A stretch of 64,000 nucleotides of DNA, from positions 30,450,501 through 30,514,500 of the forward strand of contig NC_092323.1 in assembly GCF_036785885.1 (NCBI RefSeq). Reading direction: 5' to 3'. The notes under the pieces are model-generated. The model saw only the letters and a list, made by a program, of their open reading frames with translations, searched no databases and was not told the origin of the DNA. Numbering within the stretch: the first letter of the stretch is position 1; each line of letters starts with the position of its first letter. Positions 15,156 to 16,655 of this stretch are shown here, one piece after another. The DNA comes from Coffea arabica. Taxonomy: Eukaryota; Streptophyta; Magnoliopsida; Gentianales; Rubiaceae. The position numbers and the translations under genes were made by a program.

Positions 15156-15169
15156 TAGAAACTACAGTA

Positions 15170-15223
15170 CCGGTCACCAGGTCACTGTGCATAACTAAAT
15201 TGGTGACCGGCTTACCAGGTCAC
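15170..15223. repeat. Cluster of GGTCAC/GGTGAC motifs, possible iterons
   Basis: CCGGTCACC at 15170-15178 is matched by its inverse GGTGACCGG at 15202-15210. ACCAGGTCAC occurs directly repeated at 15176-15185 and 15214-15223. Geminivirus intergenic regions carry short repeated Rep-binding motifs (iterons) of this size. Assignment as iterons is inference from position at the edge of the viral remnant; no stem-loop with the conserved loop was found beside it. Confidence 0.4.
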
Positions 15224-15329
15224 CTGTCCTTGATTTACTGTTAGGCACTGTATATCATGTGTCTTCCACGTGACCCGGTTGATGTAGTGGATGATGGGTC
15301 CCATGTGTAATGAGAAAATCGCATGGTAT

Positions 15330-15828
15330 TTTTGGCGGTATCTTTAATTTGAACGATTACACTATTCATTGATTTGTTGTATGATGTGATTTGGACATAA
15401 TTATTGCAATTTTGAACGGATAGTTTGTTTTTAAAACTTTGTGAAGTTGTTATTGTTTCCCGCTTAATTGTTTAGCACGATTTATTGACAATTGCTGAAT
15501 ACGTTTGGTCTGGCTTGCTGAGAACGATTTATTAGAATTGCTGAGGACAATTTTGGTATTAGTGTATGTAAACCTTAAAATTGGTGAATTTTAATTGTTA
15601 TGTTATATTATATGATAAATCGTGGATTATTAGCGGATTTGATATGTAATTGGTATTGTTTTAACATTTTTTAATAAATTTATATGTTGAATTATAAATT
15701 AATGTTTTTCATAATGGTATTTATTATGGACTTTATAATTGTAGTTGTTATTAGTTTTGGTGGTCGTACATTGTTAATTATATAGTGCATATTATTAAAT
15801 TGTATATTGACACGTGTCGTATTCATTT
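15330..15828. other. AT-rich non-coding segment beside the viral C3-like gene
   Basis: This stretch holds no ORF of note and no recognisable coat-protein motif on either strand. In a geminivirus the coat-protein gene would converge on C3 here. I see only AT-rich sequence, which may be decayed virion-sense sequence or unrelated host DNA. Confidence 0.5.
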
Positions 15829-16227
15829 TTATCGATGAATGGTAATTTTATTAATAACAATCATAAATAGGGCTTCGAACCCTATTATTACATTCCATTC
15901 GGATATTACATCGTCTATTGCTATATTAAATAATTTGACTAAAAAATATGGACTGAAATTATTCAATTTTCGAAAAATCATAATGTATAGCCTCCGGATA
16001 ATACTTGGAAAATTGACTACACTGCTCTGTATCCAGATATGCTCTATACGCTTGTACGATGTGATGTGGAGAAGCCTCCTTGGTGTGTGATTTATCCGAA
16101 ACATGACTATTAATGTGTTCCACGGTCTCAAAAAGGGTCTTATATGACCCTGACCCTGCAATTGGATGTGAAATTGTGTTGGTGTTGGAAGTAGGGGTAT
16201 TGCATTTCTGTTGATGATCATATCCAT
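15829..16227 (-). CDS. Geminivirus C3/REn-like ORF, intact (132 residues)
   Basis: The length and position fit the replication-enhancer protein of begomovirus/curtovirus-type geminiviruses, usually a little over 130 residues. In viruses this nuclear protein binds Rep and host replication factors and raises viral DNA levels. Visible features are a hydrophobic, basic central region (MFRINHTPRRLLHI, YKRIEHIWIQ) and a C-terminal series of aromatic and aliphatic residues (RLYIMIFRKLNNF, FNIAIDDVISEW). The frame starts with ATG 10 bp before the Rep stop and overlaps the C2-like frame over most of its first two thirds. It is unbroken although Rep in the same copy is not. The identification rests on pattern and gene order. 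There is no sign of expression in the sequence. Confidence 0.75.
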   Translation of the reverse strand: MDMIINRNAIPLLPTPTQFHIQLQGQGHIRPFLRPWNTLIVMFRINHTPRRLLHITSYKRIEHIWIQSSVVNFPSIIRRLYIMIFRKLNNFSPYFLVKLFNIAIDDVISEWNVIIGFEALFMIVINKITIHR

Positions 16228-16390
16228 CTTCCTCGGCGAGCAACTCGTGGAAAAGTGTCTTCGGAGTTGTTCGAGCTCGCTTGAGGTGTCTCCTGTGTCT
16301 GACTTTGACTTCCCTGATTTTCTGCTTCAGAGCTGGAGGCTCTGTTGTTTTCCTGATACAGTGGCTTGGAGATGAATACGAATTTTGCAT
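15959..16390 (-). CDS. Geminivirus C2/TrAP-like ORF, intact (143 residues)
   Basis: The ATG lies inside the Rep C-terminal coding region and the frame overlaps the C3-like ORF, as in begomovirus/curtovirus C2. The N-terminus has the short Ser/His/Cys-containing start seen in this family (SSPSHC) followed by a basic stretch (KQKIREVKVRHRRHLKRAR), a plausible nuclear signal. The C-terminal end is mildly acidic. I do not see the Cys/His cluster that forms the zinc finger of typical begomovirus transcription-activator proteins; only about three Cys are present, at residues near 11, 62 and 124. It may therefore belong to a divergent lineage. In viruses C2 activates late genes or suppresses silencing; no function is claimed for this copy. 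Confidence 0.68.
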   Translation of the reverse strand: MQNSYSSPSHCIRKTTEPPALKQKIREVKVRHRRHLKRARTTPKTLFHELLAEEDGYDHQQKCNTPTSNTNTISHPIAGSGSYKTLFETVEHINSHVSDKSHTKEASPHHIVQAYRAYLDTEQCSQFSKYYPEAIHYDFSKIE

Positions 16391-16655
16391 TGTTTTCTGT
16401 CCAGTCCCTTAATGCTTGCTTATTGGCTCTGTCCAAATAATCCCTATATGATGAATCTGGACCTAGATTGCACACTATGATAGCTGGAATTCCTCCTCTA
16501 ATCAGGACTGGTTTGCCGTATTTGTAGTTTGATACCCAGTCTGTTTTCCTAATCTGGATAGGCCTTCGACAATAATAGACATTGGTCTGTTGGGCCTCGA
16601 TTCAATGGGCTTTATATTTGAATTAGCCCATTCCAATAATTCATATGGCACATTA
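16218..16655 (-). pseudogene. Geminivirus Rep (C1) C-terminal remnant, frameshifted and internally deleted
   Basis: Rep is the rolling-circle initiator with an N-terminal HUH endonuclease and a C-terminal SF3 helicase. Here only the helicase half is present. The phosphate-binding loop (EGLSRLGK) is visible near 16540-16560. At that point one base is missing from an A run and the frame shifts. Immediately after it the sequence jumps to the conserved segment with YKYGKPV, GGIPAIIV and SSYRDYLD, so roughly 55-70 residues carrying Walker B and motif C are absent. The Rep tail after SKPLYQ is Ser/Gln/Glu-rich and ends at 16218. The N-terminal half is lost where the hAT element begins at 16660. It is clearly non-functional. 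Confidence 0.85.

What the first reader, a model, noticed from the sequence alone, without database searches (positions are those of the whole stretch)
15156..16655. Endogenous geminivirus-like element with overlapping C1/C2/C3 frames
Three minus-strand frames keep the overlap geometry of geminivirus complementary-sense genes: the C2-like ATG lies inside Rep, and the Rep stop overlaps the C3-like ATG by 10 bp. Rep motifs (P-loop, YKYGKPV block) are directly visible. Such a multi-gene arrangement is strong evidence for an integrated ssDNA virus. The C2-like protein lacks an obvious zinc finger and the Rep tail is unusual, so the source lineage may be undescribed.
Basis: partly seen in the sequence, partly recalled or inferred. 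Interest (0 to 1): 0.86.

Follow-up and report, generated by a model that had tools for sequence, protein, structure and literature searches.

The report
Broken endogenous geminivirus fragment in plant
A 1.5-kb piece of an old plant virus is stuck in this plant chromosome, broken and no longer able to copy itself, but its sister copies elsewhere in the genome point to an unusual virus line that seems to have had no coat-protein gene.

Summary
The three overlapping minus-strand frames are real and beyond chance (0 of 20,000 shuffles). The stretch 15147/15154-16659 is a truncated endogenous geminivirus copy in a 1.2-Gb plant genome. Rep is supported by Pfam: Gemini_AL1_M in the window, Gemini_AL1 and AL1_M in sister copies. 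The window copy is broken: no Rep catalytic domain, no origin hairpin, a private 153-154-bp frameshifting deletion in Rep (so P-loop and YKYGKPV block lie in different frames) and a private 1-bp deletion in the C3 tail. C2 and C3 hit no Pfam model; they are positional homologues only. At least eight partial copies lie at five places, including a head-to-tail array with about 2.6-kb spacing. Two sister copies keep an origin hairpin with TAAGATTCC, reported for becurtoviruses, eragroviruses and one mastrevirus. None of 31 coat-gene matches in the genome lies at the family's places. Copies at different places differ mostly silently in Rep, which suggests a replicating coat-less lineage that integrated several times. 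Endogenous geminiviruses are well known; this combination of features I did not find described.

The parts
15147..16659 (.). whole endogenous geminivirus fragment; left end 15147 (three sister copies) or 15154 (one), right end 16659
   Evidence: limits of homology to sister copies in blastn
15154..15828 (.). AT-rich stretch without long frames, where other geminiviruses have the coat gene; present in all family places searched
   Evidence: eight DNA matches in the genome; no + strand frame above 48 codons in five copies; no Pfam hit in its pieces
15829..16227 (-). C3-like frame (positional replication-enhancer homologue); about the last 11 codons are a frameshifted tail
15959..16390 (-). C2-like frame (positional transcription-activator homologue), no zinc finger, overlapped throughout by Rep and C3
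16218..16541 (-). C-terminal part of Rep with the YKYGKPV block, including the stop
16542..16543 (.). junction of the private 153-154-bp deletion in Rep
   Evidence: 5 of 5 spanning copies have the extra bases
16544..16659 (-). end of the Rep central domain with the P-loop, in another frame
   Evidence: Gemini_AL1_M E 3.2e-5, 24.4 bits, cut-off 24; cut before the junction it falls to 18.2 bits
14838..15150 (.). left flank: dispersed LTR-like repeat, 78% to 32825-33133
16658..16717 (.). right flank: short stretch (78.7%) also found beside the C10:16.37-Mb copy; probably a dispersed repeat

Best explanation
15147/15154-16659 is a dead, doubly truncated copy of an endogenous geminivirus. Shown: it is one of at least eight partial copies, some head to tail with about 2.6-kb spacing, of an element with Rep and overlapping C2 and C3 frames on one strand and, in sister copies, an origin hairpin with TAAGATTCC. 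Inferred: in life Rep nicked that hairpin and drove rolling-circle replication, C3 acted as replication enhancer and C2 as a regulator, as in geminiviruses; circles or concatemers were captured at chromosome breaks at five or so places; at this place the ends were lost to host repeats and a deletion broke Rep. The fragment cannot replicate now; at most it could feed host silencing with small RNAs (not tested).
For: Gemini_AL1_M in the window; AL1 and AL1_M in sister copies L012 and L014, E 1e-31 to 5e-36 and 3e-16 to 6e-19; three-frame openness; family copies and array spacing; origin hairpins; private lesions; no AL1 match in the window among 43 in the genome; unrelated flanks apart from dispersed repeats; a database C3 99% identical with the same shifted tail, so probably the same locus in another assembly.
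Against: The window's own Rep profile hit is only just above the cut-off; C2 and C3 hit no Pfam model; the genome-wide search for Gemini_AL3 never ran (tool busy); no geminivirus reference sequences were on hand, so no tree was made; C2 found no homologue in the protein database.
Confidence: 0.9

Rival explanations
1. Host use: copies spread inside the genome, and Rep or C3 was kept by selection after integration, as proposed for yam EGV1; the silent differences would then date from the host phase.
For: dN/dS 0.11-0.48 in 18 of 18 Rep pairs between places; yam precedent (PMC5014472, passages and section 3.2).
Against: Every examined copy is lesioned or truncated; inside the C5 array codon positions are roughly flat and one of three Rep pairs has dN/dS 1.33; flanks differ between places.
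Confidence: 0.1
2. Contamination or an episomal virus assembled into the contig.
For: Geminiviruses can be episomal; 2.6-kb spacing is what concatemers show.
Against: The window copy is a truncated fragment between plant repeats, sister copies are decayed and lie at five places in long contigs.
Confidence: 0.01
3. Chance open frames or an unrelated plant gene family.
For: C2 and C3 have no family match.
Against: 0 of 20,000 shuffles; Rep profile hits; the frames recur in sister copies.
Confidence: 0.01

Closest known systems
Endogenous geminiviral sequences of plants (survey PMC7758297; parts 1-5 of 7 read)
   Same: Partial, decayed, multi-copy Rep-bearing insertions in a plant genome, some clustered
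   Different: The survey names TAATATTAC for its one complete tea element; which of its clades this family belongs to was not tested
Yam EGV1/EGV2 (PMC5014472; passages and section 3.2)
   Same: Rep and REn kept, no detectable coat gene, tandem units (EGV1 unit 2,642 bp; spacing here 2,592-2,640 bp)
   Different: EGV1 has TAATATTAC and a REn recognisable by BlastX; no TrAP was found there, whereas a C2-like frame is present here
Eragrovirus ECSV and becurtoviruses (PMC2666655, PMC8073023; passages)
   Same: TAAGATTCC at the origin; ECSV has an unspliced Rep close to begomoviruses and a C2 overlapping Rep
   Different: They encode a coat protein; no C3 is listed for ECSV in the passages seen
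Olea europaea geminivirus (PMC8000510; passages)
   Same: C1-C2-C3 in the same relative frames; C2-end to C3-end 127 nt there, 130 nt here
   Different: It has a coat gene and a Pfam-recognisable AC2
Macadamia endogenous geminiviral element (PMC8626973; passages)
   Same: Deleted, disrupted AC1-AC2-AC3 remains in a plant genome
   Different: It also carries coat-gene (AV1) remains in the authors' figure legend

Membership tests
Endogenous geminiviral sequence (EGV) | Rep homologue of geminivirus type | tested here: met
   Window PF08283 24.4 bits; sister copies PF00799 and PF08283
Endogenous geminiviral sequence (EGV) | Integrated in host DNA | tested here: met
   Plant repeats on both sides and a plant gene in the window; contig of a 1.2-Gb assembly
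Geminiviridae | Complete Rep with catalytic domain | tested here: not met
   No AL1 in the window; met in sister copies
Geminiviridae | Origin hairpin with a conserved nonanucleotide | tested here: not met
   Absent from the window fragment; in four sister copies examined, TAAGATTCC in two and one-base variants in two
Geminiviridae | Coat protein gene | tested here: not met
   0 of 31 PF00844 matches at the family's places; no frame in its slot
Geminiviridae | Unit length 2.5-3.7 kb | tested here: met
   2,592-2,640-bp spacing in the C5 array; range as given in PMC7758297
Begomovirus-type TrAP (C2) and REn (C3) | Pfam Gemini_AL2 and Gemini_AL3 | tested here: not met
   No hit for the window frames or the sister frames scanned; genome-wide AL3 search not answered; AL2 search scored 150 of 701 candidates, none of them at the family's places
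Becurtovirus / Eragrovirus | TAAGATTCC nonanucleotide | tested here: met
   Sister copies in C5 and C10, not the window itself
Becurtovirus / Eragrovirus | Rep closest to these genera in a tree | not testable with these tools
   No reference Reps on hand

The most novel reading that the evidence does not exclude
The copies are fossils of a coat-less, plasmid-like geminivirus lineage with a becurto/eragrovirus-type origin and C1-C2-C3 genes, which replicated and diversified under selection on Rep and C3 without encoding a capsid and entered this genome at about five places.
Probability: 0.4. Interest if true: 0.7.

Novelty: new variant of a known kind. Interest (0 to 1): 0.45.

Why it matters
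The window copy alone is an ordinary dead fragment. Its family matters more: it joins features that are split among living genera (TAAGATTCC origin; C1-C2-C3 order) and lacks a coat gene at several insertion places, so it bears on how geminivirus genomes were put together and on whether capsid-free geminivirus replicons can persist in plants.

Tried and rejected
IMG/VR scans for relatives and for a Rep P-loop motif gave no relative or two and three stretches that I did not examine further. GTDB scan with C3: none. Plasmids and phages: no match, or one at E 0.8. PDB by sequence: nothing below E 0.19. NCBIfam and PHROGs: nothing below E 0.09. Structure models were too poor (mean pLDDT 42.6 and 35.6), so no fold search was run. 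Gag_p24_C matches to the Rep C-terminal frame are below that family's cut-off (17.5 and 16.7 against 25.9 bits; likewise P0002 and P0003) and were set aside. Idea of two components, the Rep/C2/C3 circle plus the coat arrays at C3 and C16: not supported for those arrays, whose intergenic stretches match the C21 (TAATATTAC) lineage and not this family; other coat loci were looked at only in part. Left flank as an interrupted LTR that resumes on the right: no resumption seen (best E 0.01). The host species could not be named from any call.

Full report
WHAT THE WINDOW IS. The window lies in a plant genome: a BTB/POZ gene of the At2g24240 type at 62062-63504 and reverse-transcriptase and hAT fragments. 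It is C14:30450501-30514500 of an unnamed assembly of 1,197,963,845 bases in 131 contigs.

THE OBSERVATION. Searches confirm the three minus-strand frames, the C2-like ATG inside Rep and the 10-bp overlap of the Rep stop with the C3-like ATG. The longest stop-free runs in 15800-16640 are 127, 149 and 165 codons. All three together were reached by 0 of 20,000 dinucleotide shuffles, the longest alone by 43. Among 2,456 other stretches of the window 224 had one run as long and 0 had two. The frame relations equal those of Olea europaea geminivirus as printed in PMC8000510 (passages): C2 at +1 and C3 at +2 to Rep, C2-end to C3-end 127 nt there and 130 nt here; but the C2 start lies 172 nt inside Rep here against 88 nt there, and the C3 start 9 nt inside Rep against 57 nt beyond it. 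With three different frames a match of order is a one-in-two event, so this is weak support.

REP IS REAL AND BROKEN. The P-loop piece 16729-16505 hits Gemini_AL1_M (E 3.2e-5, 24.4 bits, cut-off 24). It is in another frame than the C-terminal piece. Sister copies explain why: 5 of 5 copies that span 16542 have 153-154 bp more than the window. None of 43 Gemini_AL1 matches in the genome falls in the window, so the catalytic domain is missing. Sister frames L012:350-1369 and L014:956-1693 carry both AL1 and AL1_M, L014:3856-4287 AL1 and L014:2935-3852 AL1_M.

THE FAMILY OF COPIES. C3 has 14 matches in the genome and the Rep C-terminus 40, of which eight rows (66-100% identity) belong to this family and 32 (31-48%) to other lineages (the tool calls its counts lower bounds). 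The left non-coding stretch has eight matches. The copies lie at C14 (window), C5:30.155-30.166 Mb (four partial units), C10:16.37 Mb, C10:17.02 Mb and C13:29.2 Mb. Homology to the window stops at 15147 (three copies) or 15154 (one); the C10:16.37-Mb copy begins inside, at 15475. On the right it stops at 16659 in four copies and 16657 in one. Flanks are unrelated apart from dispersed repeats. The C5 units lie head to tail with 2,592-2,640-bp spacing. The C10:16.37-Mb copy begins and ends in the non-coding stretch, at window-equivalent 15475 and 15501, as a circle opened there would. That it came from a circle is inference.

LESIONS. The window copy misses 1 bp at 15865 against 5 of 5 covering copies, so about the last 11 residues of C3 are a shifted tail. 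A database protein, P0001 (718-bp contig), is 99% identical to the window C3 and has that same tail, so it is probably this locus in another assembly. P0002 and P0003 match the Rep C-terminus at 90% over 71% and 84% over 75% of it and differ upstream; the C13 copy has an extra base near that point, so they may come from relatives of that copy.

ORIGIN. The window fragment holds no origin hairpin. In the C5 array an inverted repeat (L014:4528-4562, 12-nt arms, 92% complementary) holds TAAGATTCC, 113 bp before the point that corresponds to 15147. The C10:16.37-Mb copy has the same nonanucleotide; the C13 and first C5 copies differ by one base. Of six intergenic stretches fetched from other lineages, three (two at C21, one at C9) have TAATATTAC in a hairpin and three gave none at the threshold used; the C16 coat array also has TAATATTAC. 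TAAGATTCC is stated for Becurtovirus, Eragrovirus and one mastrevirus (PMC13385248 and PMC10653810, passages). Against this, one review introduction (PMC12193555, passage) names both nonanucleotides when describing begomovirus common regions. A library search for TAAGATTCC with 'endogenous' gave one paper, on food security, seen as a listing only.

NO COAT GENE. None of 31 Gemini_coat matches lies at the family's places. In five copies the stretch between C3 and the intergenic region has no + strand frame above 48 codons, and the pieces of the window stretch that were scanned hit no coat family. Yam EGV1 and EGV2 also lack detectable coat genes (PMC5014472, section 3.2), so this is not unique.

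SELECTION. On natural open stretches, pairs under 60 codons left out, 18 of 18 Rep pairs between places have dN/dS 0.11-0.48. Of three pairs inside the C5 array one has 1.33 (144 codons) and two 0.46 (100 and 159 codons); the last has dS 0.27, out of line with the array, and probably runs across a frame difference. Six of six C3 pairs give 0.22-0.64. By codon position, differences between places are 0.054, 0.045, 0.134 in the C2/C3 overlap (C3 frame) and 0.143, 0.092, 0.179 in the Rep/C2 overlap (Rep frame); the C3-only part shows no third-position excess (0.107, 0.091, 0.076) and Rep-only a weak one (0.094, 0.078, 0.113). Inside the array values are roughly flat. Pairs share copies and are not independent. 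I read this as divergence of a replicating element followed by neutral decay after integration, with selection in the host as the main rival. C2 cannot be tested alone because it is overlapped throughout. If array units were identical at integration, their 6-9% non-coding divergence would mean roughly 5-7 million years at a recalled plant rate of 6.5e-9 per site per year; slower rates would make it older.

C2 AND C3. Neither hits AL2 or AL3; the genome-wide AL3 search did not complete. C2 has three lone cysteines and found no homologue in the protein database. The eragrovirus paper notes that trap and ren positional homologues share undetectable or very low similarity across genera (PMC2666655, passages), so a missing profile hit is not decisive.

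VERDICT. A real endogenous geminivirus fragment, dead at this place; ordinary as a kind (PMC7758297 counted 2,359 Rep loci in plant genomes), but part of a family whose combination of TAAGATTCC origin, C1-C2-C3 order and no coat gene I did not find described in the searches, which cover open-licence papers only.

Noticed in passing
G000:C1:15,675,116-16,136,578: About 0.46 Mb of mostly 2.44-kb tandem repeats with weak Gemini_AL2 matches (best E 0.004; 144 of the 150 rows scored, of 701 candidates). A piece (L049) is 99% identical over 172 bp to the flank of the C16 coat array and 84-87% over about 127 bp to Rep loci of other lineages: it looks like satellite DNA made from a geminivirus.
   Followed up: partly
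G000:C3:56,559,608-56,577,295 and C16:6,199,526-6,227,146: Coat-gene arrays: eight rows spaced exactly 2,433 bp with open 277-aa frames at C3, and twelve rows spaced about 2,460 bp, each with one or two stops, at C16. No AL1 or Rep C-terminus match was listed there; their intergenic stretches match the C21 lineage.
   Followed up: partly
L018, L023 (C21:5.40 Mb, C17:34.72 Mb): Other endogenous geminivirus lineages with open Rep frames of 366 and 372 aa, 48-49% identical to the L012 Rep of this family.
   Followed up: partly
L026-L029 (C4, C9, C3, C10): More distant C3/C2 relatives (46-59% identity in C3), with two further C3 rows of the same score, apparently duplicates: a further decayed sub-lineage.
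   Followed up: no
window 18420-24051 and 43772-52187: Long direct repeats, 97.8% over 3,280 bp (shift 2,375) and 93.6% over 3,262 bp, probably retroelement pieces.
   Followed up: no
window 15150-15250: Stretch with GGTGACC/GGTCACC repeats that folds better than all 200 shuffles as single-stranded DNA (z -3.3); it is the intergenic edge of the element in sister copies.
   Followed up: partly
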